Below are positions 4,475 to 64,000 of a stretch of DNA of 64,000 bases, in pieces. A program made the translations under genes and the position numbers. The notes under the pieces were generated by a model. That model was not told where the DNA came from, did no database searches, and saw only the letters and a list, made by a program, of their open reading frames with translations. Every line of letters starts with the position of its first letter. Positions within the stretch are counted from its first letter, which is position 1. This stretch comes from Acephala macrosclerotiorum (Eukaryota > Ascomycota > Leotiomycetes > Helotiales > Mollisiaceae): contig MU119233.1 of NCBI GenBank assembly GCA_014904845.1, forward strand, positions 300,611 to 364,610, in the 5' to 3' direction.

Positions 4475-4663
4475 ATGGCCAACCTGAAGACTCCCTCGCA
4501 CCCCCGTCACGTGCCAAAGCACTACCATTTCTTTTGCAAGACATGCCGCTACAATATGACACAGCCTCCATGCACCTGCAAAACATACGAGGCGAGGCAA
4601 TGGGATGAATGTCCGGAGTGTGAAATAAGACAGAGAATTACACCAAAGAACGTTAGGCGTTGA
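4475..4663 (+). CDS. Small Cys/His-rich protein, family member 1 (62 aa)
   Basis: A 62-residue basic protein. It contains HYHFFCKTC, then CTC, then CPEC, the same order of knuckles (HxH-x(2)-CxxC, CxC, CxxC) seen in the other cluster members. The middle NIYxC segment is replaced by a shorter stretch. There is no signal peptide or membrane segment. Paired Cys-x2-Cys with histidines suggests zinc binding, but no known domain was recognised. The same frame is open back through the truncated dehydrogenase, so a fused product is formally possible. The separate ATG and a nearby TATA-like box favour an independent gene. Confidence 0.55.
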   Translation: MANLKTPSHPRHVPKHYHFFCKTCRYNMTQPPCTCKTYEARQWDECPECEIRQRITPKNVRR

Positions 4664-5034
4664 GGTTATCGAGTGGTAGACGGGCTGGACCCGAATCTGG
4701 TGCGATGGGTAAGGGAGAGGGAGAAGGGCAATGGGAGGGAGAAATCTCTATCTAACAACACGGAATCTGCCTGGCTTGAGTTATAGGATGCTCGAAGATA
4801 ATCACATTCATACTTGAGTATTTCGTAGTTCAGATCATTTCATATTCCTTAAGTGATTAGAAGCCCCTTCAAACTTCATATTTACAGCCTTCGTCTCAGC
4901 CCACTTTGATTTTCGTAAACATAAACCTCGACAGCAGCAACTCACACGTCCTCATTACCAATTCCAGGGTATAGAACCAAATACCCATCATCGATACGCG
5001 TCCAAAAATTCCGTCCCCATCACCTCGATACGCC

Positions 5035-5166
5035 ATCGACCACATCTACCGAAATTACTTCTGTGAACACTTTGAACAGCTCGTGAAGGAGAATATATAC
5101 GAATGCTCTTGCGGTTGAACTACATCTGTTGCGTTGCTGCCGCTCTACCTACATTGTCCTTGCTGG
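5035..5166 (+). pseudogene. Cys/His-rich family remnant (locus 2)
   Basis: A short stretch reads DHIYRNYFCEHFEQ followed by ENIYECSCG and a stop. It aligns with HIHHNIYCEAC and NIYDCPC of its neighbour. One Cys of the CxxC pair is lost (CEHF), the stop follows CSC, and the terminal PGPCxxC motif is only vaguely visible out of context (CPCWA). No start codon in frame with a convincing N-terminus was found. Confidence 0.6.
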
Positions 5167-5379
5167 GCTAGTGCTAAAGGTCAAGCTAGAGGTTTGGAAT
5201 TAGATGGACGGGTAACATATCAGATGTGAATGAGAGTTAAAGGGCTCAACTTAGATGGAGGAGGAGAAGAAGATAGAACTTGAATGGATTTTTAGAACTG
5301 TCTGAGCATAAATACAATCTTTTTTTCAATTTTCGTTCTTGATACACGTGAAACCATCTCAACGATACAAAATTTAAAA

Positions 5380-5670
5380 ATGGGAAACTTCATCTCTAAA
5401 TCATTAATAAAAGCTACCCTATATCCTCCCGAGTCAATATCCTCAATTTTATGCATCGCAAAACCACCTTCTCGGCAAGATCTTAACCATATCCACTGGA
5501 ACCTTTTCTGCCATTCTTGTAATAGGGTTTTGAAGAGGAACGTTTACAACTGTACCTGCATTGGCGCTTTGCCAAACTATATCAAATTCGGGCACTGTCT
5601 AGCTCTATTCAGCTGCGATTTCAGTAGGCTTGACTTCTTTTGCAGGGGTACCGTCAGTGAGTCTTTGTAG
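5380..5670 (+). CDS. Small Cys/His-rich protein, family member 3, MGNFISK type (96 aa)
   Basis: The frame starts MGNFISKSLIK and continues to the family core NHIHWNLFCHSC and NVYNCTC. The N-terminus fits the eukaryotic N-myristoylation pattern (Gly2, Ser6) and recurs in the gene at 15399 (MGKSFSK) and the broken copy at 5882. This suggests a shared, functionally important N-terminus. The usual ending with (P/T)GPCxxC is missing. The C-terminus is instead a hydrophobic, Cys-containing tail, which may result from an old frameshift or an unseen intron. No homologous family is recognised, and function is unknown. Confidence 0.55.
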   Translation: MGNFISKSLIKATLYPPESISSILCIAKPPSRQDLNHIHWNLFCHSCNRVLKRNVYNCTCIGALPNYIKFGHCLALFSCDFSRLDFFCRGTVSESL

Positions 5671-5881
5671 AGGCTTAGTAATAAATAAAAAAAGTCACAA
5701 CAATTTGGTAAACACGACTGGTGTCCATGTTGAATCAAGTTATCTGTAAAATTGTATTCCCCAACCTTCGTACATCATATAAAATTATCAGATTCCAAGT
5801 TCTTCTCATTCGATAACTCGAAAAGCTTCGAAGACCTTCAGGCTCCAACACCTCAAAGACAACGAAACACATTCCATATTT

Positions 5882-6159
5882 ATGGGAAATACATCTCCAA
5901 ATTAAAAAGGAAACTTACCTCTCAGCTAGCTCAAGACCAAATACGTACGGATCCAATTCCGTCCCCCAATATCCACACCCTCTTAGGCCTCGGTCACATC
6001 CACCACAATATCTATTGTGAAGCTTGCCATAGCTACATGAAGCTAAATATCTACGACTGTCCTTGCGTTGATCGGTGGAGATTGGATCTGACTATATTGT
6101 CATTCTATGTTCCAGGCCCCTGTGAAACGTGTCGTGAAGATATTGTATTCCACATATGA
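5882..6159 (+). pseudogene. Cys/His-rich family member 4, frameshifted in the first codons
   Basis: The family core is complete: HIHHNIYCEACHS, NIYDCPC and VPGPCETC before the stop at 6157-6159. The core frame runs upstream through GKYISKLKRKL but lacks an ATG. An ATGGGAAA at 5882 is one base out of frame with it, as if one A were missing from the A-run. The gene would otherwise resemble the MG..ISK genes at 5380 and 15399. It may be a pseudogene or a homopolymer sequencing error. Confidence 0.6.
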
Positions 6160-7799
6160 TATTTTTCGTATCGGGAAGAGACTCCGGTAGGGGGATCTAG
6201 TTGCATAGAGCGCGTGGACGGTACAAATCTTAGATATTGCGGATAATAGAACTTCCAAAAAAAAAAAAAAAAAAAAAAAAATTACAAAAGGAGCTGGGTT
6301 TAGAACCCTCTCATCAAAGTGCGGGTGACAGTAATCCGTATCATATTTACCGGACACCACTAAATTAACATTACTTCCCCATACAATTGCTCTCTTGCAA
6401 TGTATAACAAAAACTTGAAATGTGTTGGAGAAAGAAGTTTGATTGGAAGAGCAAAGTGTCGGTGACAGAAAGAGAAGCCGTTATTCCCTCTATTCTCACG
6501 TGCTGTAGTAGGAACATTACAAGCCCTCCTTCAAAATTGCTCCGACCATAAAAACCCCTGAGCTCCCTTTGTTTCGGAGTTGAGAAGTCGTTTGTTTGAG
6601 AAGTGTAAACTACTTCACATCAGCAATTTCATAAGGGCCATTTTATGATTTAAAACTTACATTATAAGTGATAATGCTGATGGGACTTTTGTCGCAGTAG
6701 CCGCAGTAGTTGCAGTCGTTGTGCACGATGTCAGCCTCGTCAGCCTCAACCTGACTCTGAGCCGCCTACTTCCGCAGCAAATACTACCAACGCTACGCGC
6801 GCTGATTTGATAATCCAACAGACTTGAAATCGCTAACATGACTGTATTCGCACTAACTTGTCCATTAGCTTCTCTAAATCCGCCACCAGGATTATCCCTT
6901 GCGCGCGTTTGTTGCAGGACATAAGCGTCGGACGAGAGATGTAGAGCATTGTCGAGAATAGAGGAGGAATACCTATATGCGAAGTCGAGGAGTTGGAGGG
7001 GCGCGCTCTTGATATGTTGTTTAGGCGGGCATCGCGTGGACGCTTGTTGAGGCTGTTGTCTTGGAGGGAGATGAGGGAATTGTGGGGTTTAAGATGGTGA
7101 TTGGGGCGGGTTGCGAGGGTGCTGCCCCGAGCCGAGACGGGGGGGGAGGCCGAGGAGTGGCGGTTGGTTTGAGGGACGTCGCTGTTGACTTCTCCCTTGA
7201 TGGGCGTTTAATTCGTCGTGAAGATGCCTTCAATTGACAGGTCCTGCTGTGGGCGAGAAGGCTTCGATCGTGGTTTCCGCCTAAGGCATTTATGCATCGC
7301 ACGACCAAGTCCCTGGGCAGGCTTAAGCCACGATTTTTGAATCCTACTTCTCTTCTTACCGACGACCCCATCCAGTGCTGTCAATCATCTAGCACTAGAT
7401 GGGTGAGAATGCTGGATGGGACGCCCTACACCTCTGTGCTTCACGTCTGCTATCTCATCTCTAAGTCCACCCGTACAAAAGTTCGAATTCATGAGGCAGC
7501 CTGAGAGACGCTTCTCGGAAGATCCCTGAACGCGCCCTACCGATCGCGTACTCGGAGTGATCTTAGTCTGCATCGTGGCGTTTTCAAGTGACACAGAGGA
7601 AATCAAGCTGTGAAATTGTCCATTCGACTACCACCCTACAAGGGACAGCTCTAGGCTCTAGCGGAGTAGCCTGATCAAGAGGTTGCATGCAATTTTAGCT
7701 CCTTCATCAAATTTCCACTCATCGTAGTTGCCCCTTTTCGTTTATCTAGTCGTCAATCCACTTCAGTCTCTTTCACAACCTTAAGTCTCAAACCCGCAA
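6160..7799. other. Intergenic region, poly(A) run at 6257-6281
   Basis: No supported gene. It contains 25 consecutive A at 6257-6281, then a sequence on the minus strand resembling a Pol III B box (see rejected items). Short frames on both strands are low-complexity. The final ~120 bases before 7800 are pyrimidine-rich and probably hold the promoter of the HET gene. Confidence 0.4.
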
Positions 7800-10251
7800 A
7801 TGCTCTGCGATATTTGTCTAGCAATATTCGCTGTGCCTCGAAAGCTCAGCTATGGAACCTATTATCCATGGGGACACAGCAGTGCATCTTTTGCCAAAGC
7901 TAGGAAGGAAGGCTGCTACCTTTGTAATATCGTGTGGGAGAACAGATCCTATAGCGATCCTTTTCCTGACTTCGATCGCGATTTCCCGCGAGATTGCACA
8001 TATGCCTTTAAACTCTTGAACCCGCAATGGGCACGCAGTGGCCTAGGTTCAAAGTGGCTCGTTGCGCCTGATCCGAGAGGGGACGACTGGGGCACTGATA
8101 TTTCAAAATATTTGAGTGAGGTGGACAAAGTCCCCATGGCCGATCTTACTCACCTACTCGAAACGGAAGCAGACGAGCTATTCACCAAACCAGCACTCTT
8201 CTGGATGGTTATCGACTTTTACTGCCCAGGGCCCCGCATTGTAATTCCACTCGATATTGTGAGGGGTCAGTACGAGCGCCGTGTTCTTGTATCCCTCTAT
8301 GCGCTAACACTTGGTGGCAGATGACCTCGAAGATATGGCCCAGGACAATCAAGATCAACAAGATTTTACAGGTTCAACAGAAAACCTCCGACTTGCATGC
8401 GCTTGGCTGGATAATTGCTTGGAAAATCATGAGCAATGCCGTCCCAATTTTGAAGACGAAAGTTGGTTACCTACCCGCTTGCTCTACGTGGGCACATTAG
8501 ATACGCCTACCGTTCGGCTTGTTTCTACTCTATCTCTGAGCGAAAACGTCCCATATGCTGCGCTCAGCCACTGCTGGGGAACAAACAAAGAATTTGTGCT
8601 CACTTCGACCTTACTACAAAGTTACGAAACCGAAATTCGTACATCTAATGTTTCCGCAACATTACGGGATGCGTTCCATACTACAAGAAGCATTGGGCTT
8701 CAGTATTTGTGGGTAGACTGTCTTTGCATTATACAAGATGACCAGGAGGATTGGGCGCGAGAGTCGGCTACGATGTCAAAAGTCTATGGACTGTCTACTT
8801 GCACGATTGCGGCGACCCTTGGCGGAAATGGTGACGGTGGCTGCTTCACCACTCGAAATCAATTCGGGGTACGACCTTGTAAGATTCCGAACCCGTTCGA
8901 CAAGGATTCCAGGCTATTTTTCTATGCACGCTCGCAGTACCTCGGCGAAATTTACAAGCGGGAGGTTAAGGAATCACCTTGGTACAGTCGCGGTTGGGTC
9001 TTTCAGGAACGCACTCTGTCCCCACGCCTATTGATATTTGGAAAAACGCAGATGTTATGGGCTTGTCAGAAACTTCATGCAGCAGAGACTTGGCCGTGTG
9101 GAGCAACGAGTGACGATTACATTGATCGTTTTGAGTCTTTCGAAGTCGACAAATCCCGGCTTCAAACTCTTTTAGAGCGAGATCGAATTATTTCACCCTG
9201 GGACACGACTTGGTATACTTTTATTCAGGACTATACCAAGTCGCATTTGACAAGGATGTCAGATAGGTTGATTGCTTTGCAAGGGCTGACGTCACATATT
9301 GCTTCTGTGACAGACAGACGGTACTGCGCCGGTCTATGGATCGACCAAACCTTGCCTCTATCACTATTGTGGAACGCGTCATCTCCCGAAACCCAAAGAT
9401 CAAAGGAGTACAGGGCGCCGACATGGTCCTGGGCTTCAATGGATGGGCCAATAAAATTCAAATGCATCAGCCATCAGTTGCAAACTACCACCCTAGTCAT
9501 GATCGATCTACATGGAACTGAGGATTTGCCATACCATCAAAGACATATTTCCAGGGTTCCACTAGCAAATCTGACGCTCTCAGGAAGGTTGTCGCCGGTG
9601 AGGCTGGTATCCATCAGCAGAATGTGTCCGTTAAGACTGCTGAGGACAACCTCAACGGTCCACCCGAAAAATGAATCCATTGCCGTATCGAGGTATAACT
9701 TTTTACGGGAGTTTATGCGGTGGTGTGATGTCATTTTCCTTTTGGCCTGGGAAAAATTCGTGCCAGCCTTAGCCCTTTGCTTTAGAAACCCGATAGTCCA
9801 TATGATCATCTTTCTATTCGTTGGGTCCATACTCCTCATAATCGGGATCAAATCCCGTATCGACATGTGGCTGGGAGTCGCTCTTACGGTTGCCGGGCTT
9901 CTTAAGACATACCTGGTGATCTGGTACCGGACAAGTCTTACCGATCTAATCGAGAACTGGTTTTCTAGGACATTTACTTCCCCTGTCGATTCTCCATCTG
10001 AACCAACTGCCCCTCTTCCGGTGGGCCCTCTCTATGCAGATTGCACTATCGATACTCCATTACGCTATTGCAACCTCGACGCATTCTGTTTGCCAATCCT
10101 GAGGTGGAAAAAAGGTGGGTATGAAGGCCTGATATTGAAACCGGCTGCGAGGGGAGAGGGATATTATGAGCGAGTCGGAACCTTTACCCAACCCAATCCC
10201 CAGGTGACGATGATGTTGGATTCTACTCAAGTGTCGTTTATTTTGACTTAA
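7800..10251 (+). CDS. HET-domain protein with C-terminal membrane segments (798 aa)
   Basis: Two exons (7800-8265 and 8321-10251). The 55-bp intron has donor GTCAGT, a CTAAC branch site and CAG acceptor, chosen because the earlier GTGAGG breaks the phase. The N-terminus has a CDIC knuckle and EGCYLCNIVW, typical of fungal HET proteins. The HET domain starts near residue 230 (YAALSHCWG), continues with YLWVDCLCIIQDD and a motif ending GWVFQERTLSPR, and runs to about residue 390. HET proteins trigger cell death after fusion of incompatible strains or other non-self cues. Unusually, the C-terminal quarter has two strongly hydrophobic segments around residues 645-700, suggesting membrane attachment. 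The frame is intact. It sits between the small Cys-rich gene groups and next to the hAT transposon. Confidence 0.85.
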
Positions 10252-10503
10252 AATTGATGTGTAAATTTCAGCGCTAGGATCTACATAATACTTTTTCTTA
10301 CCACTTTTCCACCTTTTCCAAATCTCTTCAACAAGAACTTTGTGAGTAATTGGCATAAATGAATCTGTTCTCCTGCGCTTCTTCTCGGGTCTGAGCATTT
10401 TTAGGTCAAACTAAAAAGTGGATTACCTAGCTAATAGAGAGATTAGAAGGTTTGCGGGGAGGACTATAGGAATCTTAGGGATTTCACTTCTCATTTGATA
10501 ATC

Positions 10504-10511
10504 AATATATC
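10504..10511. repeat. 8-bp target-site duplication, left (AATATATC)
   Basis: AATATATC directly precedes the CAGGCTCG terminus at 10512. The identical octamer follows the other terminus at 13011-13018. Eight-base duplications are diagnostic of hAT insertion. Confidence 0.9.
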
Positions 10512-13010
10512 CAGGCTCGACTTCGATACTTGAGACATCGATACGATATCGATACTAAGTAGTATTAGTCAAATATTACAAATATCGATACGTATCGATA
10601 AAGAATCGATTTTTATATCGCTTTTTTACTTTGTACTTTACAATTTCTCTTTTTTTTACTTTTTTCTTTTCGTACGACGATTTTATTTGAATTATATTTT
10701 TAAAATGTTTTTTTTATTTGAATTAAATTCTTTTTTTATAGTTTTTGTTTTAATAAAATCAATTATAATTATTTAAAATTATAATACGAAATAGAAATTC
10801 TTCGTTTAAAAATACTATTATCGTTCGATTAAAAAAAAAAATTAAATTTATTTTTATTGTATTTATTATACTAATTCAATAAAAAGTTTATTATATAATA
10901 TTATTATAGTAAAAAATATAAAAAAGTACTTAAAAATTATTATTAAATTATTATTAAAAATTTTTTAAATAAGAATTAAATAGTAATTAATAAGTAATTA
11001 AAATAGTATTATTAATAAATTGATAAAATTAATAAGAAAAAAGAATTTAATATTGAGATTTTAAAAGTTTGTTTTAATATATTAATTTTCGTTGAAATTT
11101 TAATTATTTTTATCGTCGTACGAAATTTATTTTTTTGTTTCGTTGAATAATTAAAATTTTATATTTTTTACTAAATATTAAATCGAGTTTTTAAAAGTAA
11201 AATTACGATCGTTTATTTAAAAATTATTAATTTAATTAAAAAAATTTGAAAGAAGTATTAAAATATCGTACGACGAGTATTTTAAATAATATTTTTATAT
11301 ATTTATATTTTTTTTAATATTTGAATTTTTTCAAATTATTAGTTTTTACTAGTAATTTGTATTTATTTTATTACGTACAATTAAAAGAAATAAAAAGTTT
11401 TTTTCGTTTTAAATTTTTTTTTTAATTATAATTTAAAAGTTTAATTTATTATTTTTTAATTAATTTTTAAAAATTATAATATTTTTATAAATAACGTTTT
11501 TTATTAATTAATTTAAAAAAAGTTAAAAAATACGTTTAATTTGATTTAAAAAATAAAATATTAATATATTTATTATTTTAATTATATTATTAATTTTATT
11601 GTATAAATTTTTTTATTTATAAATATAATTGATTTAAATAATTTTGAATCGTACGATTAGTAAAAAGAAATTAAAGTTTTTAATATAATAAAAACAATAA
11701 AAATTTAATTTAAATTTATAAATTTATTTAATTAAATATATAATATTGTAATCTATATTCGTAAATCGATTAAAAAAATAAAAAAATTTCATATATTTAC
11801 AAAAAAACTAATTTCAATAAATAATTGTACGAAATAAAATAATTAATATTAAATATTTTTTGTATTATTTAATTTACGATTTACAATAGAAAAATATTAT
11901 TAAAATTACAAAAAAGAATTTAAAAAAAATATTTTGATTTTTAAAAATTGAAAAAAGTTTTATACGATTAAAAATTTTTTTATTTTTTTTTAACGAATTA
12001 TTTTTATTATTAAAAAAAAAAAAATTTTTTTATTTTTATTTTTTTATAATAAATATTTTAATTAAATATTTTTAAAAAAAGAATATAAAATTTTTTTTTT
12101 TCGTATAATTAAATTAATCTTTATATAATAAATTAAATATAAAAAAAATAAAAATAAAAAAAATAAATTTTTTTTTTATTAAATTAAAATAATATATAAA
12201 GTTTTTAATAATTATTATATAAAAATTAATATATTTTCGATTTATATCGTTATATTAATTTTAAATCTTTATAATTATACGAAGTATATTAAAATATATT
12301 GATTAAAAAAATAATTAAAATCGATTTTAATTAAAATTAAAAAGTTTTAAAAAAAATATAAAAAAAAAATTATAATTTTATTTATTTTTTCGATTTTCTC
12401 GTACGATAATTCGTTTCGTGAATTATTGAAATTTGATATTTTTAATCGGATTATTTTATTTTTTCGAGTAATCGCTCGATCTACAAATAAAAACGAATAT
12501 AAAAACTATAATTTATTTGAATTGTACGATTTTAATAAAAGAAAAACTTTCGTTTAATAATATTAATTAAAGTTTTTATTTATAATTATTAATATTTTTT
12601 TAATTTTATTAATAAATAATAAATCAAAAAAAAATATTTTCAAAAACTCGTCGTACAATAAATTGAAATAAAAAGCAAATAAAATTGAAAACGATTAAAG
12701 TACGAAAGTATTTAAAGTATTAAAAAAAAGTAAAATTTTAAATATTTTTTTTTAAAATTAATTTATTTAAAAATAATAAACGTAATAAAAATAATAATAA
12801 TAATCGTACGAAAAGAAAATGTTTTATACAACGTAGTATTATAAGAAAAATTTCTCGTAGAAATAATAGAATTTATCTTAAGAAGAAAAAAAAAGTATAT
12901 TATGTAATAAATTCGCTAAAAATCGATACTTTATCGATAATACTAATACCTTACGATTCTAGTATCAATACCGTATCGATACCGGAAATTAGGTATTACA
13001 GCCGAGCCTG
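10512..13010. mobile_element. hAT-superfamily DNA transposon, RIP-degraded (2,499 bp)
   Basis: The ends are inverted copies: CAGGCTCGACTT at the left and, read in reverse complement, CAGGCTCGGCTG at the right. Looser inverted similarity continues inward for about 90 bp, including ATCGATAC blocks. The CAGGC terminus and exact 8-bp duplication identify hAT. The 2.3-kb interior is overwhelmingly A/T and contains no coding frame. Many of the remaining C on the plus strand are in CpG. This is what fungal RIP leaves when it acts on CpA and spares CpG. Terminal GC-containing sequence survives while the body is erased. No transposase can be read, so the superfamily call rests on the ends and duplication. 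Confidence 0.88.
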
Positions 13011-13018
13011 AATATATC
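13011..13018. repeat. 8-bp target-site duplication, right (AATATATC)
   Basis: Exact copy of the octamer at 10504-10511, immediately after the CGAGCCTG end of the hAT element. Confidence 0.9.
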
Positions 13019-13862
13019 ACGTGATGTAATATATCTATTGTACATCACAATCTGCAAATCGGGATCTCTTTCTCCAAGTGTTTCCATAGGCCAGGAAACG
13101 ACTTTCCGTTCTTTATACCTCGAGATTCCGAATTGGTTTTGAAGATCTCGACGTTAGCTTTCGAATCAGAGAAGGGAATTTGTGCAGCATAACTTACTTT
13201 CCCGTCCTCCCGTGCTATTTTCGAAGAAGCTGGCACGAGGTCGCGTCCTCCACCTGAGAGATTCCGAACTCGCTTCCACGTCTCCCTATTCTAGTTCTTG
13301 AATTCATAATTGTTCTGCTCCCCTAGACAAATTGTACTACGAGTCAGGGAAGCTAGGATGCTGCCCGAGCTATGCAATACCTCAATGTGCGGTCTTTTCC
13401 TTGCCAGTGATTATCGAGCATATTGGATACGTCAATGTCGTAGTGCACGCCCCAGCACATAATCAGGCTTAGAACACTGGAAGTTTCACTATAAGTTTGC
13501 ACTAAGCTTCCTGTGTGTATCCTTTCCATCCCATAATCGAAGGTTTTCAGAATTCTTCAAAAAGTATATTAACGCGGGGTAATTCAAAACCACTTAACAC
13601 GAGAAAAGAGGCGTAACTGACTAGGCAACGGCAAAGAGCCTCATGAATTTTGTAAAATGATATAAAAATACAAATAAGTGAAATAAATAAAGCTATTCAC
13701 ACACTCTTAAGTATTGTAATATAGCTAGAAACAATCCCGGCAAATAGAGAGTGAACATAAACGGCAAGCAAGCCTCGTAACATAGATTCCCTTCTTTTTA
13801 ATTTTTCTTTTTATTTCCTTGTATCGACAAAAGTAGCAAAAGCGGGGGGGGGNNNNNNNNNN

Positions 13863-13894
<32 letters not shown>

Positions 13895-14642
13895 AGACTG
13901 CTCGTTACGACTAGCAGCGCATAGAGGGCTGCTAAGCACCGAACTGAGCTCCGAATCGCTATCCATTTCGAATATCGAAGAATAAGGGATTATTTGCATC
14001 ACAAAATAAGGGAATCACACGGTTTATAGAGTACCGTTTGCTCGCGTTGAGCTTAAGAGGTTAATGCATCGCATTTTATTCGATTCTACGCGTTTTTACG
14101 TGTCAAGTTTCGACGTTGAAAACGCCTCTTTTACCCCTCGTCGATATCACATATCAAAAACCCTCGATTATAGGATGGAAGGGATATATAGCTCCTAGTT
14201 CTTCTTATAGTTCTGAATAATAGATCAAGTCCATGCAACACAAGCAAATGGAGTTTAGATTTCAATGACGGAGCGTAAAGTCAAAGATCTTGCTCAAGCT
14301 GCTCAAGCTGCTCAAGCTAGCTGCTCATGGTGCTCGGGTGAATCGACTGACCCAAGTGTGAGCCGAGAGTGATTAGCGCCTGAGCAAGAGCGGCAAGCTT
14401 ACTAACTAAATGCGACGTACAAGAAAGAGAAAATCGATTCATAATACTCAAATATTCGTTTTTCTTAAGAAAGGCTAGATATTGCTTCTCCATCAAAACA
14501 ATTACTGAGGCATACTTAAAGAAACTCTTGAATCGTTTGAGTTTCACTTCTTTTATTTTTTGAAACCAGATGTAATATATACATTCTACACCCGATTATT
14601 CCAAGTTCTTCCTAACTTGCCGTTTTTCTTAGTCTAGTCTAG
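13019..14642. other. Intergenic region with assembly gap
   Basis: No gene is supported. It includes a poly(G) run broken by ten N at 13853-13862 (G run 13844-13852, then 13863-13893), and three copies of the 9-mer TGCTCAAGC near 14291-14317. Other frames are short and without motifs. Confidence 0.5.
13853..13862. other. Assembly gap (10 N) inside a poly(G) tract
   Basis: Ten ambiguous bases flanked by nine and thirty-one G. Length and content here are not reliable. Confidence 0.98.
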
Positions 14643-15038
14643 GTTGAACTAATAGACGAAAAGATATCAACGAAAAACACGCCTATCAAGGTTCAAGATC
14701 GTGGTGAACTTTCCTTCCAAATCAAAAGTCACACCCAACTCCCAATTCCCATCATCTCTAACTTTATCTCCCTCAAATCATACGCTCGTTCTCCAAAAAA
14801 GATCGACCACCTCCACTGCCACGCCGTCCGTAAGCTCTACAGAAAGGTCTTGAAAACGGACCTTTACAGCTGCTCTTGCAATTCAGGGCCTGAGGTCCAA
14901 ACTCTGCCTATTATCGTCCCTGGTCCTTGCAACTATTGTGATCGACGTATTGTGATCATTGTTGACGACTTCCTACGTAGAATTGAGGGCGTTGAGCGGC
15001 TTGGCCTTTCCTTGCCATACGTGTATTGCCAGAGATAG
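14643..15038 (+). pseudogene. Cys/His-rich family remnant (locus 5), no start codon
   Basis: A frame open from 14643 contains DHLHCHAVRKLY, then TDLYSCSC, then IVPGPCNYC. This aligns with the core and tail of the 15399 gene. The first CxxC knuckle is degraded (RKLY where CSSC is expected). No ATG precedes the core in frame. The copy ends at a stop at 15036-15038. It is adjacent to, and in tandem with, the intact copy at 15399. Confidence 0.6.
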
Positions 15039-15398
15039 CCTGATATCAGAGAAGGTAATAAGTCGCTTGGAAAGAGGCGTTGAAGAAATGAAACGCATGG
15101 ACACGTGGGGTGAAGAATTTCTTTGGAGGACATGAAATTTGAGTGGGGGAATGGACAAACCTTGCAAAGGAAATAAATATTGAAACCCATTGGTGAATAT
15201 CTAGGTAATCACAATTAAAAAACTCAGCTTGGTCAGTGTGAATATCTGAATCATTTGCAAAACCACGTTCATTATCTCATCTATAAGTTTATTAAGTGTC
15301 CGACATTCCGCTCTTTTCCTCAGTTCCTTCTACCTTGGCGAATATCACGCTCCAGCTTCGAAACACAACATGAATCTATTGATCCGGAGTTCGCAGTT

Positions 15399-15671
15399 AT
15401 GGGCAAATCATTTTCCAAGCAACGTGCTTCTAAGCTTCTGGTATCACCGACAATACCTCGCCCCGCCCAAGCGCCGGATCGTGAACCAGACGGTCCAGAT
15501 CTTAACCACCTTCACCGCCTCGCTTTTTGTAGCTCATGTAACAGGGTCTTGAGCATGAATCTCTACAATTGCAATTGTACACCAGAGTCCGGAGGAGTTT
15601 GCTTGCAATTCTATGTCACAGGCCCATGTGTATATTGCGACGGACGTTCCGTAGCGATGAGACCTGACTAG
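15399..15671 (+). CDS. Small Cys/His-rich protein, family member 6, MGKSFSK type (90 aa)
   Basis: An intact 90-residue frame. Its N-terminus MGKSFSKQR fits a possible N-myristoylation signal (Gly2, Ser6). A Pro-rich linker follows, then NHLHRLAFCSSC, NLYNCNC and VTGPCVYC near the C-terminus. The start was chosen by similarity to the MGNFISK start of the gene at 5380. The order HxH, CxxC, CxC, CxxC is compatible with one or two zinc sites; that is inference. There is no secretion signal or membrane helix. It is one of the best-preserved copies and a good reference for subgroup A. Function is unknown, and no named domain was recognised. Confidence 0.7.
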   Translation: MGKSFSKQRASKLLVSPTIPRPAQAPDREPDGPDLNHLHRLAFCSSCNRVLSMNLYNCNCTPESGGVCLQFYVTGPCVYCDGRSVAMRPD

Positions 15672-15916
15672 ATATGCTTAGAGAGCTGAGGGCCTGTCAA
15701 GATACTTCGTTGGCCTGGGACTTCTTCTACATATCTAGGCAGAGATAGCGGGTTTTGATCAGATGAAGAATCTGCAGGTGCAAAATATGCGTCAAAGCAT
15801 CACAGTATCGATTCAGGCTACTTTGCCGATGAATACGTGGTAGAAAGTGTGACAAGTCGTAAGCATAAACACGTGAATCACTTGAAGTTCTGTAAGATCT
15901 TACAATACAGGCAAAG

Positions 15917-15924
15917 TATAAAAG
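15917..15924 (+). promoter_or_regulatory. TATA box of the 16023 gene
   Basis: TATAAAAG lies about 100 bp upstream of the ATG at 16023, similar spacing to the TATATAAAG before the related gene at 17153. It supports transcription of the small ORF. Confidence 0.5.
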
Positions 15925-16022
15925 CAGTCCTTCAAGTTTCATCGAGTCCGCTGTTTAGCAATCCCAAACATCCGATCGATATTCCATCGCAGCGCAACAG
16001 CAATCAGAGACGAAAAGTCAGA

Positions 16023-16280
16023 ATGTTTCAACCGATCCCCAAAAGACCACAAGTTTCCCACACTTCAGGTACGCTATGCCCGCCTTGCAAGATTAAGCAC
16101 GACTTGACATCCACTCATATTCATGTACATACAATATGCGGTACTTGCTTCCGAATGGTGGAACCGAATATCCTCAAGTGTACTTGTGCGGGGTTGGATC
16201 GCCCGTACAGCAACAGATATGACAAGCTGCAAGGAAAAGGCATGGGGTTCTGTGTGTGCTTGCACAGAGGCGAAGATTGA
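16023..16280 (+). CDS. Small Cys/His-rich protein, family member 7, CPxC type (85 aa)
   Basis: An intact 85-residue frame representing subgroup B. It has an extra N-terminal knuckle (TLCPPCKIKH), then THIHVHTICGTC, NILKCTC and a final CVC. Subgroup B starts without the MG..SK motif and has the CPxC..H pair instead, giving up to four Cys pairs plus an HxHxH cluster. No signal peptide, helix-rich domain or known zinc-finger signature fits. The ATG follows a TATA box by about 100 bp. The terminal VPGxCxxC motif of other members is replaced by GFCVC. Confidence 0.7.
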   Translation: MFQPIPKRPQVSHTSGTLCPPCKIKHDLTSTHIHVHTICGTCFRMVEPNILKCTCAGLDRPYSNRYDKLQGKGMGFCVCLHRGED

Positions 16281-16602
16281 AGGGATACAAAAGACATCCC
16301 GAGAGAAAAGCGTTGCTATTAGTGGGTGGTGTTAAGAACCATGTGATTTAGTGCTGAGTCAGTGCTGCGGGGTTTCAGAGATCTCTCTCTCTCTTTGAGA
16401 ACCATCATCATTAATATCATCAATAACAACAATAATCATCAATATCATCAAATCTTGACAGGTGGAAGTAGACAAGAGATGGGCTAGGATTCTGGATCAT
16501 GCAAGAGTCTCAAGACTCGAAGCTTGTCAGTTGAGACATGGGACCACATGGCGGTGCCACCGGCTTCATTAAGGGGGTGGGGTGGCCTCACCACCCTCTG
16601 TG

Positions 16603-16611
16603 TATATAAAG
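16603..16611 (+). promoter_or_regulatory. Orphan TATATAAAG element
   Basis: TATATAAAG, identical to the element before the 17153 gene, but the downstream 250 bases contain no recognisable family core, only short frames. It may mark the promoter of a copy whose coding part is gone, or an untranslated transcript. Confidence 0.35.
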
Positions 16612-17028
16612 GCCTTTTGTAGCCCTTTTCACCATCAATGCAGTCTTTACCAAGCAACTGACAAAGCTAATGCACTTGCCGAATTCACATCAACCCACTC
16701 GAGAACTAAAGCGAGAGGAAAAGTAGTCAAAAATCTGAAAGCGATAGACAACTTTCTGTACAACATGTGGCTTGGAAAACTTCTCCAACTTCTCCAACTC
16801 GTCAATTATTTTATCACAGTCATCACGTGATATCCATTTCTTGCCAAGCTGATTTGTTTCTAAAGTTTTTGAGTGAGTATAGCGTAAGATAGCGACACAA
16901 GAGCCTATATCTATTCATATAGTGTAGTAAAAGTTTCATTTTGAAAGCCAATGAATCATGACAACAGACTCAAAATGGCCACATATGTAATTCACATGAA
17001 ATTTTGATCACTCAATCATTGCCCAGAC

Positions 17029-17037
17029 TATATAAAG
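17029..17037 (+). promoter_or_regulatory. TATA box of the 17153 gene
   Basis: TATATAAAG about 115 bp upstream of the ATG at 17153. It is the same nonamer as at 16603. Confidence 0.55.
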
Positions 17038-17152
17038 CCCAGTCTTCGTTCGAAAATTCCTTTTTCGAATATAATCGCATTAAATTTACACCAGAAATCT
17101 CCTTCAAAATATCCTCAAGAAGAGAATCTCAGTTCACAGGCTAGCCTTGAAG

Positions 17153-17539
17153 ATGTCTCAACAAGAACAAGAACGGCACGAGACCAACCCAGATAAGACG
17201 TGCATGATATGCTGGGTCCTACATCCACTGCCTTCAAAAGATCCCCACACACATGTCGACGCCTGGTGCTCTCGCTGCTCAACTGTCATCGGGGTCAATA
17301 TCTTCAACTGCCCTGATCCTCATGGTGCTCGAACCAAACTTCAACCAATACCTGGAAAATGCGGCAATCCCGCGACAAATTGTGTTCCACCAACGAATGG
17401 AAGCATCCCCGACTCCGATCCTAATACTTTTCAGATGGAGTTGGGACTTGAAACTCGAAGCGAATACACTTATATCTGGGAGTTGGTGAACCTTGATCGG
17501 GAGCGAAGAAACACTCTTGCTTTATTGTGGAAGAGCTAA
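17153..17539 (+). CDS. Small Cys/His-rich protein, family member 8, long form (128 aa)
   Basis: An intact frame of 128 residues starting MSQQEQERH. The core reads KTCMICWVLHPLP, HTHVDAWCSRC, NIFNCPD and PIPGKCGNPATNC. This gives CxxC, HxH, CxxC, C, and a widened final pair (CxxxxxxC instead of CxxC). A unique acidic C-terminal extension of about 50 residues follows. The start at 17153 was chosen because the decayed neighbour at 18073 begins with the similar MSQNPEHQ. No secretion signal was seen. Family function is unknown; zinc binding is inferred only from the Cys/His pattern. Confidence 0.7.
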   Translation: MSQQEQERHETNPDKTCMICWVLHPLPSKDPHTHVDAWCSRCSTVIGVNIFNCPDPHGARTKLQPIPGKCGNPATNCVPPTNGSIPDSDPNTFQMELGLETRSEYTYIWELVNLDRERRNTLALLWKS

Positions 17540-18072
17540 ACTTGCGCTTTATTGAAATATGCGATGATTTGGATTATGAATTGTGGTCCCGCTGTAGACT
17601 TTGCCGAGAAGTTTGACTTCTTCAAGGCGAAGGTGGAAGGATTTTATCACTACTCAAATTTTTCATGGCATTGTTGAAAAAATTGCCTAACAAATGCGAT
17701 GCTTTGAATTGTGAAATGACCTCCGAGGGGCATGAAGCGTGAGTGTTTGCATTGCATTCTCACAAGACACTCCTTTCTCTAAGATGTTCGTGTAACTCTT
17801 GAACGAACAGGAGTTAAAGCATAAAATATGAGCATTAATGAGAACTATTAAGAACCATTAAGAACTCTCTCTGCTCTATTGATGATGGGTTCTTGCCGAG
17901 ACTTGGGCGTTTAGTAGGAAGGGGACTAGAAGAATAGGCTGAGGATGAGATGATATCTGTGGATCACTTGAACTTGAAACTTTGCTCCTCGCATTTTCTC
18001 CCACGATACCTCTTCTAACAGACGAGACCTTACCTCGCGCCTGGGCTTATGCGTTGCGAAAATTCTTCCAAA

Positions 18073-18329
18073 ATGTCTCAAAATCCAGAACATCAAGCTC
18101 ACGCAACCATGCTGACAAAAGCTGCCACAATTTAGAAATCCGCCATATCCCGCTATCATATGCACTGGGATACGATCGTTTTCACGTCTTCATCATCTGC
18201 GCCACCTGTTAATCAGCCTGTGCTCGAAATATCGTTAACCGAGACTATGCAAATCCGGCTATGAGGGGAAGGTTGAGTTGGAATGGCTTTGACGACCCGG
18301 TGGACATATTTTGTATTTGCTTAGGCTAG
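18073..18329 (+). pseudogene. Cys/His-rich family member 9, stop and frameshift
   Basis: The 5' end MSQNPEHQAH matches the start of the 17153 gene. A one-base shift then leads to DKSCHNLEIRHIPL and FHVFIICATC, followed by an in-frame TAA where the chain should continue. Beyond it ARNIVNRDYAN still resembles the NIFxC segment. It is clearly a tandem duplicate of the 17153 gene that has decayed. Confidence 0.6.
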
Positions 18330-18462
18330 GCCGGGGTGCGTGAATCACATTAGTATTCAACCCCAGCCCAAACAATTAAATCCTCCAACTAACTGTTCAA
18401 ATATAATCTCCCAAGAAATTCCACGACCAAAAATTTCCAGGAAGACACAAACTGAAGTCAAG

Positions 18463-18683
18463 ATGAAAGCAGTAAACAAAACACCACACCCCACCGGTCG
18501 CACCTGCCCAGTCTGTGACATAACACACGAGCATGGACCCAAAGGACATTGGCACATCTACACCATCTGCATAACATGTAAAACATCATTGAGGCGAATA
18601 TCTTCAGGTGTACGGACGGGGGTTCTGCAAAAATAAGAGTTAATCTTGTGCCTGGAGCATGCAAGATCTGTCAAGGTTTGTGA
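18463..18683 (+). pseudogene. Cys/His-rich family member 10, single frameshift
   Basis: Starts MKAVNKTPH, then RTCPVCDITHEHGPKGHWHI, then YTICITCKTS. After CKTS the reading shifts. The expected continuation (EANIFRCTDGG and LVPGACKICQGL, stop at 18681-18683) is present one frame over. Without the shift it would be the most typical subgroup-B protein. As it stands the frame ends after RTGVLQK with the last two knuckles lost. A sequencing error at 18585-18590 would restore it. Confidence 0.65.
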
Positions 18684-19123
18684 AGGGAGGATGGGCTGAA
18701 TGACGTGCTGCTGGGCATGGCTGAGGAGTCTGGCTGGGGATGTGAATGCAAGCTTGTTGGGTGATGACGGGTGGCGATGAGAAGGACGAACTTTGGGTTG
18801 TAGTGAAAGAATAGAATAGAATTGTTCTCGACAAGCGAAGAAAGTCAATATAGATTCGTATGAAGCGGTAGTGAAGGTAGCCAAAACTTTGCAGATGAGC
18901 CTGCAATACCACCTGTAGGGATGAATGTGGCCCTTATAAGTGCTTAAAAGCTTTTCGTTTAACTGTGGATTTGAATGATAAATTTTTTTTAAGTTTTTTT
19001 TTCTTCTTTTTTCTTTTATATTATATAAAGTGAATTTCTTTTCTTTTTTTTCTTTTTCCTCTTTTCTCCCTTTTTACGGCCTTTGCTAACTTATAATGGA
19101 TAAGATACTGTAAGAATGTTGGG

Positions 19124-19191
19124 ATTGTGAGAGAGTTGAGATTGTGAGAGAGTTGAGATTGTGAGAGAGTTGAGATTGTGAGAGAGTTGGA
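19124..19191. repeat. 17-bp tandem repeat, four copies
   Basis: Four copies of ATTGTGAGAGAGTTGAG, nearly perfect, in the spacer between a broken family member and the pogo-split member. A minisatellite with no coding significance seen. Confidence 0.9.
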
Positions 19192-19521
19192 AGGCAGCGA
19201 GAGGCTGGGAGCTTAAAGGAGATTGTGAGAAGGCGTGGGAGTAAGATGACACTAGAGATCGCATTACGTAGTAATAAACTTTGAAATTAACGCTCTAATT
19301 ATCTACTTGAGTCCGTGAGCTTTAAGTTTGTGCTTCTAATCTTACTCCCGTGAGTCTTATGCTTGTTATAGATCTCCCGCGCCCACTCTCTAGCAGGTGG
19401 TCCGAGTTGGGCCCATCCCTGCCAACTGCCCTTTTGAGCAGTCTGTGCGTGTAGGAGAGATTCTCCTATGGGTGGTTTCGTAGGGAGAAAGCTACGTGAA
19501 TCAAACCAAAAGCACTTCCAT

Positions 19522-19636
19522 ATGAAACAAATGGCAAACATCTGCACGATCCAACACCTCACCGGAACTTCCACAAAGACACAAAAAACCAAAATCCAAC
19601 ATGGACTTCTCCTCCGTAGCATCAGCACTCTATCAT
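19522..19636 (+). pseudogene. Cys/His-rich family member 11, 5' half, split by the pogo element
   Basis: A frame from ATG 19522 (MKQMANICTIQHL) runs to the TA at 19637 where the transposon begins. If the element and one TA copy are removed, the frame continues directly into CIDCNYTIHFPPP at 21478 without a stop. This half carries no Cys knuckle itself, so its assignment rests on the frame continuity and the position. Confidence 0.5.
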
Positions 19637-19638
19637 TA
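19637..19638. repeat. TA target-site duplication, left
   Basis: A TA dinucleotide directly abuts the 51-bp inverted repeat. A matching TA lies at 21476-21477. TA duplication is typical of Tc1/mariner/pogo insertion. Confidence 0.85.
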
Positions 19639-19689
19639 AGTCAAACCCCCTAGAAGTGGGCCCCCCCCTGTTCTGGGCCACCTCGCTTA
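19639..19689. repeat. 51-bp terminal inverted repeat, left
   Basis: Begins AGTCAAACCCCC and ends ACCTCGCTTA. It is a perfect reverse complement of 21425-21475. Confidence 0.95.
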
Positions 19690-19728
19690 ATTCCTATCTA
19701 CCTAGTTCGACCGCGAATAACTTTTTAA

Positions 19729-21327
19729 TCAACTAATAGATATATGAGATAAAGTAGAGGCTATACTAGGGAAGTCATCGGAATCTAATAGTACATTTTG
19801 GCGGTCTCCAGCTTCCATCTGTGCCTTGTAGATCTTCTCGATATCAGCGAACTTAGAATTTGGACTAGTCCTTACTTTTCGCCGTTTTCTAGGCTCAAGT
19901 TGAACTACTCTAGCTTCCAATGCTTAGATCTTACGCTCTTGCTTAGCAATAACAAAGTCCTTATTGTCTAAGCCTTTAACTATTTTCCTAAAAAGCACTC
20001 TAGCAATTACCGTATCGATTTCTTTAAATCTCGTGATTTGCCTCGATTGTTCTCGAATATTTTCACTTTTTTGAGGGGTTTTCTATACTTCAAATGATGA
20101 ATCTTAAATCCATTCAAATGCTGCATCCTTTCCTGACAATTGTAGAGGTTTCTCGATCGCTTTATTACTATTTTCAAGTAATAATCGATTCATAAAAAAC
20201 TTCGAGATGTTCTACGGCCATAACTTTAAGACTTTCCAACTCGCCTTACAATTTCCTTCTGTTAAAGCATCTATCCGAGCTTGCTTATAACATTTCAAGA
20301 AGTTTTGCTTCCCCATAAGCGTCGAGTCGTTAATGAGAAACAGCGAATTTAGCCGCTTTCGATAAGCGGATTTAAGGAGAGAAAAAATTGATAAATCCAG
20401 AGGTTAGAGCACATGTGAAATATGCAGTAGTAAGAATAACAAGTAAATATTGTTCGAAAAGCACTTTCACATAAATTCTGTTGTCTCATGGCTTCCATGG
20501 CCGTCTAATATGAGTAGACGAGGCTCTTTTGAGTCACGTAGTGCCGTTTGAAATATGAAGACGATTTGCAACCACTCCAAGGCAGTATCGTCAGATGTCC
20601 ATCCATTATCGGTTGCGATAAATTTTTAGCTTTTATACTCTCTCAATCCCATAAGAAACCATTGTTATTGGACTGATTTTCCCTTGAATATGACGATCGA
20701 AAGAATGGCCCGACCGCTCGAGAAAATGCACTCAATAAATGAGGTCTAAGTTTTAGATCCTAATTATTTCTTTTGAATAAAACGTTTCTCAACACTCCCA
20801 ACCACTAATCCATTCTCCCCTTGACCTTCCATAATCCCCGCTTCATTTATATTCCATCGGTTTTCAGCTTTGATTACTTTGATCGTCGGTATCTCCAATT
20901 TTTGAAATTAAGTTTTAATAATATCAAATGTAGCACTATTAACACGCACAGAATCGATTCTGAATTGCTTTTTGGTCTTAAGAATAGGATTCCGGCGAAG
21001 AAATCCAGCCATCCAGCGTTTTCCGAGTAGTGTAGTATCGCGTCGAGAAGCCAAAATACGGCCAGCAAAAGCTCGAATCTGTGCATGTATAGAGTTGAGC
21101 TCTAGAGTTTCTTGAACTAGTACCCAGTCTGTAAGACGTTGCTCCTGAATCGGGGCAAGCCTCTGCAAATGCGCATAGACCTCTTTCTTAGAAAGAATGC
21201 CGAGTACTCTGTATTGAAGAGTGCCTCTCGGTACACCCCAGTCGAGAGAGGATTTTCGCAAGGACTTCCCATTTGCCACGTCTTTAAGTGCATACTGGAC
21301 GTCAGCTTCCGTATATGAGGGCTTCAT
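19729..21327 (-). pseudogene. Fot1/pogo transposase, degenerate
   Basis: Read on the minus strand from MKPSYTEADVQYALKDV. A psq-type helix-turn-helix (KSLRKSSLDWGVPRGTLQYR) is followed by a CENP-B-type DNA-binding domain (RLTDWVLVQETL, then GKRWMAGFLRRN). The first open part ends at 20908. Further on, DDE_1 motifs remain visible: WNINEAG around 20838-20860, where family members have WN(I/F)DE, and LLILDGHGSH around 20490-20520. The first catalytic Asp is thus replaced by Asn, a G-to-A change of the kind RIP makes. Stops are scattered through the rest. No active enzyme is expected from this copy. Confidence 0.85.
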
Positions 21328-21424
21328 GATCGGCTCTAATGACTTGCAAAATTTGAAAGAGTTTTATTAAAGAATAATAAAAATATTCGAAGTTAAAGTG
21401 GGTAGTGGAGTAGTGGCGGTGTGC

Positions 21425-21475
21425 TAAGCGAGGTGGCCCAGAACAGGGGGGGGCCCACTTCTAGGGGGTTTGACT
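21425..21475. repeat. 51-bp terminal inverted repeat, right
   Basis: Reverse complement of 19639-19689 without mismatch, followed by the TA at 21476-21477. Confidence 0.95.
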
Positions 21476-21477
21476 TA

Positions 21478-21660
21478 CCCAATAGGCCTCCCCTGCATAG
21501 ATTGCAACTACACAATACACTTTCCTCCGCCTGCAGGTAACTACCACGTCCACAGTATCTGCAAGACATGCTGTAATGCGAGAGAGAGATGAACATCTTT
21601 CGTTGCAGAGACTGCCAGCGTCCGAAGATGAAGATTGTGGTTGTGCCTAGGAGATGTTGA
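21478..21660 (+). pseudogene. Cys/His-rich family member 11, 3' part, after the transposon
   Basis: Contains LPCIDCNYTIHFPPPAGNYH and VHSICKTCCN, the CxxC..H..CxxC core of subgroup B. The frame stops after NARER at 21590-21592. Shifted by one frame, NIFRCRDC and VVVPRRC follow to a stop at 21658-21660, matching NIFKCxC and VVPGKC. So in addition to the transposon insertion this copy carries a frameshift. Confidence 0.65.
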
Positions 21661-22008
21661 GGGCGTCGGGTAGGTGGGTTGAATAGAGCACAGGAGGAGT
21701 TAAGGGAAGTGTGAATGAGGATGTCGAAAGGAAGGAGATGGTGGGAAGCACGCTGAGTAGTTATAGAGAGGTGAATAAATTGATGGGAGTGTGATGTACA
21801 AGGCATGAGCTTCTGAGTAACGGAAATACATCAAAGACTTTCTGTGAGCAACTAGCTCTACCAGGGATGGAATAACGACAAAAGGGTGTTCTTCTCGAAA
21901 TCTGAATCATACTTCGGCCCATAAAAGCCCCACCTAACAACCGACATCGGACAGCAACTAATATTCCTCCCAAATAACCACGCAACCACTTCATCGACCG
22001 AAACCAAA

Positions 22009-22232
22009 ATGAAAGCAGTCGAAGTACCATTAATAGCTCACCCTGACAAAGGCCGCTGTCCTATGCCCCTGCTCCAAAAGGTCACTGGCACATCTTTACA
22101 GTCTGTAAGAGCTGCTCGAATACGATCAAGGCAGATATCTTCAAGTGCGACTGCGTGGCATGGCCTACAGGCAGCCACAAGAGTAGGATTGATGTTGTGC
22201 CAGGGAAGTGCGTGAGTTGTGCGGAGAGCTGA
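22009..22232 (+). pseudogene. Cys/His-rich family member 12, frameshifted subgroup B copy
   Basis: Starts MKAVEVPL, like the 18463 gene, and reaches KGRCPM. The conserved core then appears in another frame: PKGHWHIFTVCKSC, ADIFKCDC, and VVPGKCVSCAES to the stop at 22230-22232. Compared with the 18463 copy, the stretch between CPxC and the PKGHWH motif is shortened by a length not divisible by three. The last three knuckles are the best-preserved in the cluster, so loss was recent, or a short intron is being missed here. Confidence 0.65.
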
Positions 22233-60765: not shown

Positions 60766-60935
60766 TGTGAGGCCCCTTTTTCGGTGAAAGGTGCGGATGC
60801 CCGTGCGCTGATTGGTGCGTGCGCCGCTGACTAAGGCACTTTCCGGTGAAAGGGATTTCGGTAAAAAGGCAGAAAAGGTACCTCCCCTAACCCCCTTTAA
60901 ACGAGTATTCTTTCGCCTTCAAACGCGCTCTCGTT

Positions 60936-63302: not shown

Positions 63303-63908
63303 TTGGTTGCACTAGTTGAACTCAATAACCACACTTTCTATACTTTTAATCATGTCTATACTGGTACAACGACACTTACTATGAATACTCTATTCTATCG
63401 GAATTATCGAGCATCTGAGAACTGGCGTACGTTCTTCCGGTTCGACCATATGCTGCAGGGAAAGAAGTCGCGGGGCGCTTCAGAGACACTGTCGCTGCGA
63501 ATGTTTAATGCTTCTAAGCGTGGTCAAATGCGCAAGAGAAGTGCTTATGCTGAGACTGATTTACTAGCCGTTGCTCGGAAACTGTACAACGCACCAGACT
63601 TGCAATTCCGGGTTTTTGATCAGCGGAATAGAGTGCTTGCCGTTATGGGCCTTCAGTCGACCGAGCAAATGGTTCTGGTGATAGGGACCGGCTCTGGTAA
63701 GACTTTGATTGTTATGATTGGAGTTGCAGTTGCCGATGTTGGAACTACAATTCTAGTTCTTCCAATGGTAGCTTTGCGGGGTAATATACTAAAACGCTTT
63801 TACCAAGTAGGCATTCGGTCCCTGGTCTGGTCCATCGATTGTAAACGATCAGTTTCACTCGTTATTGTATCAGTCGAAACTGTTTGTACTCAAGGCTTTT
63901 TTGAATAG
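63303..63908 (+). pseudogene. RecQ-like telomere-linked helicase, N-terminal ATPase fragment
   Basis: The frame leads up to LQSTEQMVLVIGTGSGKTLI, where GTGSGKT is the Walker A motif of a superfamily 2 helicase. TTILVLPMVALRGNILKRF (motif Ia region) and SLVIVSVETVC (motif Ic-like) follow. The stop TAG is formed by the first telomere bases at 63906-63908. The DEAH box, helicase C-terminal domain and everything beyond are missing. Telomere-linked helicases are transcribed subtelomeric genes, thought to relate to telomere maintenance. This copy is cut in the middle and preceded by a decayed N-terminal part, so it is not expected to encode an active enzyme. Confidence 0.85.
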
Positions 63909-64000
63909 GGTTAGGGTTAGGGTTAGGGTTAGGGTTAGGGTTAGGGTTAGGGTTAGGGTTAGGGTTAGGGTTAGGGTTAGGGTTAGGGTTAGGGTTAGGG
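63906..64000 (+). repeat. Telomere, (TTAGGG)n
   Basis: TAGGG followed by fifteen exact copies of TTAGGG, running to the window end, G-rich strand 3' outward. This is the chromosome end or very near it. No variant repeats are interspersed. Confidence 0.98.

What the first reader, a model, noticed from the sequence alone, without database searches (positions are those of the whole stretch)
4475..22232. Twelve-locus cluster of an unrecognised small Cys/His-rich protein family
Seen directly: twelve loci in 18 kb, all on the plus strand, code for short proteins (60-130 aa) with a shared order of motifs: (CPxC..H)-HxHxxxxCxxC-x(5-7)-N(I/L/V)(Y/F/L)xCxC-(V/I)(P/T)G(P/K)CxxC. I recognise no named domain. 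Repeated motifs with scattered Cys/His argue for selection on a metal-binding or disulfide fold. Lack of signal peptides argues for an intracellular, zinc-type role. Tandem same-strand copies point to local duplication, close to a HET gene and transposons in a subtelomeric block. This is my best candidate for an undescribed system.
Basis: partly seen in the sequence, partly recalled or inferred. Interest (0 to 1): 0.85.

Follow-up and report, generated by a model that had tools for sequence, protein, structure and literature searches.

The report
Fungal orphan zinc-protein gene cluster
Near one chromosome end of a fungus lies a row of about a dozen related small genes for zinc-binding-type proteins not found elsewhere in the searches made here; about half are already broken, and their job is unknown.

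Summary
The cluster is real, but half of it is ruins. The window is the telomeric end of a fungal contig. Copies share HxHx4CxxC-x10-CxC, in the better ones followed by (P/T)GxCxxC, all on the plus strand: seven exact HxHx4CxxC matches there, none on the minus, 0.017 expected. Similarity between copies is concentrated in the coding core; pN<pS in 9 of 9 pairs in frame against 4 and 3 of 9 in wrong frames, so the core was under purifying selection. Of twelve loci, five keep a start-to-stop frame (4475 doubtful, 5380, 15399, 16023, 17153); seven are broken. There are two subfamilies: MGxxxSK (myristoylation-like start) and CxxCxxxH. Eight protein queries of the 70-Mb genome found convincing copies only here; two searches of 5.8 billion proteins found none; no Pfam model passes its cut-off. 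The closest resemblance is the zinc region of bacterial FUR repressors, suggestive only: no Pfam FUR match, no DNA-binding half, no fold support. Best reading: an orphan family of small intracellular two-zinc ribbon proteins in subtelomeric birth-and-death. Zinc binding, lipid anchor and function are inferred, not shown.

The parts
4475..4663 (+). Copy A, 62 aa, compact and doubtful member (HYHFFCKTC, CTC, CPEC)
5005..5166 (+). Copy B, decayed MG-subfamily relic with an internal stop
5380..5670 (+). Copy C, MGNFISK..., 96 aa, open; terminal Cys pair has altered spacing
5882..6159 (+). Copy D, all eight core Cys/His kept, but the homologous ATG lies out of phase with the core
14701..15038 (+). 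Copy E (core 14793-14948), start codon lost, CxxC lost, PGPCNYC kept
15399..15671 (+). Copy F, MGKSFSK..., 90 aa, complete eight-ligand set; best representative
16023..16280 (+). Copy G, CxxCxxxH subfamily, 85 aa, last Cys pair altered
17153..17539 (+). Copy H, CxxCxxxH subfamily, 128 aa, CxC is CPD, last Cys pair widely spaced, extended C-terminus
18073..18233 (+). Relic L, fragment resembling copy H (MSQ start, HVFIICATC), stops
18463..18683 (+). Copy I, CPVC...HWH...CITC, frameshift before the NIF motif, then PGACKIC
19601..19636 (+). Copy J, 5' piece: ATG frame that runs into the transposon
   Evidence: phase compared by eye from coordinates
21478..21660 (+). Copy J, 3' piece: CIDC...HVHSICKTC, then frameshift before NIFRC
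   Evidence: Core HMM 8.0 bits; frames
22009..22232 (+). Copy K, HWH...CKSC...CDC...PGKCVSC, frameshift after the N-terminal CP
19637..21477 (.). Tc5/pogo-like DNA transposon with 53-bp perfect inverted ends, TA at both ends, inserted in copy J; a transposase fragment lies on the minus strand at 20908-21363
   Evidence: HTH_Tnp_Tc5 21.7 bits and HTH_psq 20.2 bits, both just under their cut-offs
7785..10251 (+). HET-domain gene between the two MG-subfamily blocks
   Evidence: PF06985 E 6.6e-32 on 8308-10248; no Pfam match on 7785-8321
10200..13800 (.). AT-rich, RIP-like island splitting the array
   Evidence: GC 0.10-0.29 in 10001-13000; TA/AT 0.97-1.02, (CA+TG)/(AC+GT) 0.35-0.91
63905..64000 (+). 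Telomeric TTAGGG repeats, contig end

Best explanation
An orphan gene family, known so far from one subtelomeric array of a Mollisiaceae-like fungus, that encodes 9-14 kDa intracellular two-site zinc-ribbon proteins and is turning over by tandem duplication and decay. Inferred structure: CxxC plus GxCxxC form one structural Zn(Cys)4 site, HxH plus CxC a second site. The MG subfamily (5380, 15399) is probably N-myristoylated and held at a membrane; the CxxCxxxH subfamily (16023, 17153) carries an extra Cys/His knuckle and is soluble. Most likely they act as small binding adaptors, the zinc being structural, in a fast-changing process such as nonself or stress response. Shown here: relatedness of the copies, one strand, conservation concentrated in the core, past purifying selection, decay of seven loci, no other convincing copy found in this genome. 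Inferred: zinc binding, myristoylation, site pairing, adaptor role.
Confidence: 0.5

Rival explanations
1. A dying family: selection acted in the past, but no copy is functional now and the open frames are lucky survivors.
For: 7 of 12 loci broken; ligand losses in open copies; RIP-like island and transposon in the array; codon usage undistinguished.
Against: 5380 and 15399 keep pN 0.21 at saturated pS and both keep the MGxxxSK start; TATA-like sites are enriched upstream.
Confidence: 0.22
2. A fragment of the bacterial FUR (ferric uptake regulator) dimerisation domain, acquired by the fungus, that lost the DNA-binding half and kept the metal site.
For: Family profiles against PDB: Nur 3eyy at E 0.0017 and 0.00092, and 4 of 5 hits with the core profile are FUR proteins. 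Profile-profile with 5 Streptomyces FUR proteins (5 of 9 FUR loci fetched): P 4.1e-5, probability 70%, against 0.3-0.9% for three ligand-preserving permuted controls; 0 of 300 local permutations reach the true score. In PgFur the two CXXC motifs hold a structural zinc (PMC6613475, abstract start and passages read).
Against: Pfam FUR was reported for 0 of 9 members (limit E 10, but HMMER's filters drop most weak matches) and for nothing in this genome. No winged helix. The best single stretch has an independent E of only 0.015. One of six permuted PDB controls also drew FUR proteins, at E 0.67 and 1.5, and the best control E is 0.039 against 0.0009, so part of the signal is ligand spacing. FUR was tested because it came first, so those tests are not blind. 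The CxC of the family is absent from the FUR proteins aligned. No structural match.
Confidence: 0.1
3. Partner or decoy genes of the adjacent HET gene in an allorecognition locus, diversified by duplication.
For: A HET-domain gene (PF06985, E 6.6e-32) sits between the two MG blocks; the array is subtelomeric and quickly changing.
Against: Proximity only: HET genes are many in such fungi (recalled), and this one may have arrived with the AT-rich island. No polymorphism data.
Confidence: 0.12
4. Secreted cysteine-rich proteins with disulfides acting on a host.
For: Small, Cys-rich, duplicated, subtelomeric; a lineage with plant-associated members (recalled).
Against: No strongly hydrophobic N-terminus in 5 of 5 open copies by a crude hydropathy check; ligands include HxH; MGxxxSK starts.
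Confidence: 0.04
5. Chance open frames in repetitive sequence.
For: Small frames; codon usage undistinguished.
Against: Motif count, frame-specific selection, relatedness beyond ligands.
Confidence: 0.02

Closest known systems
FUR family (Pfam PF01475) dimerisation-domain zinc region, e.g. Streptomyces Nur (PDB 3eyy)
   Same: Order HxHxxxxCxxC, hydrophobic strand, then GxCxxC; profile similarity beyond ligands
   Different: No winged-helix DNA-binding domain, no Pfam FUR match, extra CxC, shorter link, fungal, shorter protein
Two-knuckle zinc ribbons such as archaeal ribosomal protein aS34 (PDB 9fhl)
   Same: Two CxxC-type knuckles; weak profile hit E 0.016
   Different: HxH and CxC pairs; no family-level sequence match
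N-myristoylated small signalling proteins with MGxxxSK-type starts (neuronal calcium sensors, Src; recalled)
   Same: MGKSFSK and MGNFISK starts
   Different: Only the presumed modification signal is alike; the rest is unrelated; modification untested
RAG1 importin-binding region (PF12560)
   Same: HxxxxCxxC stretch, E 0.0022 in 1 of 9
   Different: 18.1 bits, below the 23.3 cut-off; the other 8 do not match

Membership tests
FUR (PF01475) | Match to the Pfam FUR model | tested here: not met
   Reported for 0 of 9 members with limit E 10, filters on; 0 matches in the whole genome, while control genomes ring
FUR (PF01475) | N-terminal winged-helix DNA-binding domain | tested here: not met
   Open copies are 62-128 aa with 15-36 residues before the HxH core; no Pfam DNA-binding match
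FUR (PF01475) | HxH...CxxC...GxCxxC layout and surrounding sequence | tested here: inconclusive
   Layout met in the better copies; profile evidence suggestive, one of six permuted PDB controls also drew FUR
FUR (PF01475) | Fold of the dimerisation domain | tested here: inconclusive
N-myristoylated proteins | ATG-Gly start with Ser at position 6 (rule recalled) | tested here: met
   5380 and 15399
N-myristoylated proteins | The lipid itself | not testable with these tools
   Needs labelling or mass spectrometry
Secreted effector-like cysteine-rich proteins | Signal peptide | tested here: not met
   Crude hydropathy only, 5 of 5 open copies
RAG1_imp_bd (PF12560) | Score above the curated cut-off | tested here: not met
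   18.1 vs 23.3 bits, 1 of 9 members
Zinc-binding proteins | Bound zinc | not testable with these tools
   Ligand pattern only

The most novel reading that the evidence does not exclude
The family is a eukaryotic, membrane-tethered remnant of the FUR metal-sensing domain: a bacterial repressor's metal-sensing half, freed of its DNA-binding half, given a myristoylation signal and multiplied at a fungal chromosome end as a set of diverging metal sensors or metal buffers.
Probability: 0.07. Interest if true: 0.75.

Novelty: new variant of a known kind. Interest (0 to 1): 0.42.

Why it matters
It is a protein family absent from the libraries searched here, with clear marks of past selection, and its decaying copies lie side by side, so one locus shows how a taxon-restricted gene family is born, splits into two forms and is lost at a chromosome end. 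The MG form would be a small, lipid-anchored zinc protein. If the FUR resemblance is homology, it would be a FUR-derived domain in a fungus; I recall none described.

Tried and rejected
Codon-usage test: uninformative. tRNA and Rfam scans of the window: nothing. Weak own-genome hits outside the array, C228:69806 (E 0.0037), C191:71962 (1.5), C53:17658 (0.15) and C55:208645 (0.39), were scanned with two family HMMs; C228 gives 7.0 bits with stops inside, the others less; none is a convincing member. Query 17153 finds no other array copy, nor does 4475. A PDB search with 17153 alone gave one hit, 2luy, E 0.26. Plasmid collection tblastn with 15399: none. Viral contigs with the 22009 core: 3 pattern matches, none a relative. 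AlaX control to learn the organism: best named hit Mollisia scopiformis 83%, best hit 96% from an unnamed source. Phialocephala subalpina (69.69 Mb, 205 scaffolds; PMC5148876, passages read) is close in size to this assembly (69.66 Mb, 778 contigs), but the identity is not established. RAG1 importin-binding hit rejected (1 of 9, below cut-off). Dropped before counting: the two 21478 comparisons (anchor one codon off); of nine FUR loci fetched, L105 (near-duplicate of L104) and L107, L108, L112 (not picked up by my text filter) were not used; of 80 Nur loci only L024 and L049 were read. In one search the 5882 start was entered as 5889; its TATAAA stays inside the range; the second half of that script failed and was redone in another form. 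Literature searches: (listings; only PMC5148876 and PMC6613475 opened, passages); no description of this family was seen in those listings, and nothing wider is claimed.
Full report
What was checked. The window is the last 64,000 bases of contig C32 (364,610 bases) of a 69.66-Mb, 778-contig fungal assembly, ending in TTAGGG repeats. The AlaX gene at 22662-23570 points to a Mollisiaceae-like fungus: best named hit Mollisia scopiformis, 83% identity, with a 96% hit from an unnamed source. The species is not known to me.

State of the copies. Five of twelve have an ATG-to-stop frame with the motif (4475, 5380, 15399, 16023, 17153). Seven are broken: 5005 (stop), 5882 (ATG out of phase with the core), 14701 (start and CxxC lost), 18073 (fragment with stops), 18463 and 22009 (frameshifts), and 19601/21478, split by a 1.84-kb Tc5/pogo-like element with 53-bp perfect inverted ends and TA at both ends, and also shifted. 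In 5882, 18463 and 22009 one shift is the main lesion, which could be an assembly error; the other four carry more.

Two subfamilies. MG copies: 5380 and 15399 start MG(N/K)xxSK, and 5882 and 14701 show remains of the same start; 5005 belongs by DNA similarity. CxxCxxxH copies: 16023, 17153, 18463, 22009 have the first Cys at residue 15-19, and 19601/21478 has CIDC; relic 18073 groups with 17153. MG copies lie on both sides of the HET gene and AT-rich island; the other type follows. Permutation tests that keep the ligands in place show that the two are related beyond the ligands (0 of 300 either way). MGxxx[ST][KR] occurs in 2 of 344 ATG-started open stretches of the window; that this is a myristoylation signal is recalled knowledge.

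Uniqueness. Eight protein queries of the own genome were run. The consensus query returns 8 matches, all in the array. 17153 and 4475 find no other array copy. Four weak hits lie elsewhere, the best C228 at E 0.0037 with stops; they were looked at and are not convincing members. Two alignment searches of 5.8 billion proteins found nothing (49 and 29 candidates, none at E<=1 and <=10), although an AlaX control returned 1134 proteins, with ascomycete names among the 120 listed. At most 100 words are used per search and small unannotated genes may be missing there, so close annotated relatives are unlikely but distant or unannotated ones are not excluded. Pfam: nothing above a cut-off in 9 copies or pieces.

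What it resembles. The core profile against all PDB sequences hits Streptomyces Nur (3eyy) at E 0.0009 (best single stretch 0.015) and three more FUR proteins at E 2-4, 4 of 5 hits; a profile of longer copies gives 3eyy at 0.0017 and a ribosomal zinc ribbon, aS34, at 0.016. Six ligand-preserving permuted controls gave no hit four times, an unrelated hit at 0.14, and once an unrelated hit at 0.039 with FUR proteins at 0.67 and 1.5. Profile-profile comparison with five Streptomyces FUR proteins gives P 4e-5 and probability 70%, against under 1% for three controls; local permutations 0 of 300, though FUR was chosen because it came first. Against it: no Pfam FUR match in 9 members or in the genome, no DNA-binding half, an extra CxC, and no structural support. 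It may work like a two-knuckle zinc ribbon laid out as in FUR; it is not filed as FUR.

Mechanism. By analogy with FUR, where two CXXC motifs hold a structural zinc (reported for PgFur, PMC6613475, passages), CxxC and GxCxxC would bind one zinc; HxH and CxC would bind a second; the CxxCxxxH form has spare ligands. The MG form would sit at a membrane. An adaptor or binding role in a fast-changing process is my best guess from size, structural-type ligands and turnover; it is inference. Neighbourhood: an Fe-ADH-like gene upstream, a HET gene inside, AlaX and an O-fucosyltransferase-like gene downstream.

Verdict. It is an orphan subtelomeric family in birth-and-death with a handful of possibly live genes: interesting, moderately surprising, function open.

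Noticed in passing
window 63198-63908: A DEAD-box helicase fragment (PF00270, E 1.7e-5, 25.1 bits, just under the cut-off of 26) abuts the telomeric repeats, as telomere-linked helicase genes do in other fungi (recalled).
   Followed up: partly
window 10200-13800 and 60001-61000: Two AT-rich islands (GC down to 0.10 and 0.19 per kb) with RIP-like dinucleotide indices.
   Followed up: partly
window 19637-21477: Tc5/pogo-like transposon with perfect 53-bp ends; its transposase domains score just under the Pfam cut-offs and lie in short minus-strand frames.
   Followed up: partly
window 3025-4300: Iron-containing alcohol dehydrogenase-like gene (ADH_Fe_C E 5e-14) directly upstream; copy A lies at the end of the same open frame.
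   Followed up: no
window 19104-19189: Short array of a 17-bp tandem repeat between copies I and J.
   Followed up: no
window 13853-13862: A 10-base run of N inside the array region.
   Followed up: no
window 50635-52272: Copper amine oxidase gene (E 1.2e-161) within 14 kb of the telomere.
   Followed up: no
G000:C228:69806-69949 (locus L113): Faint, stop-ridden resemblance to the family (E 0.0037, 7.0 bits); a possible dead outlying copy or chance.
   Followed up: partly
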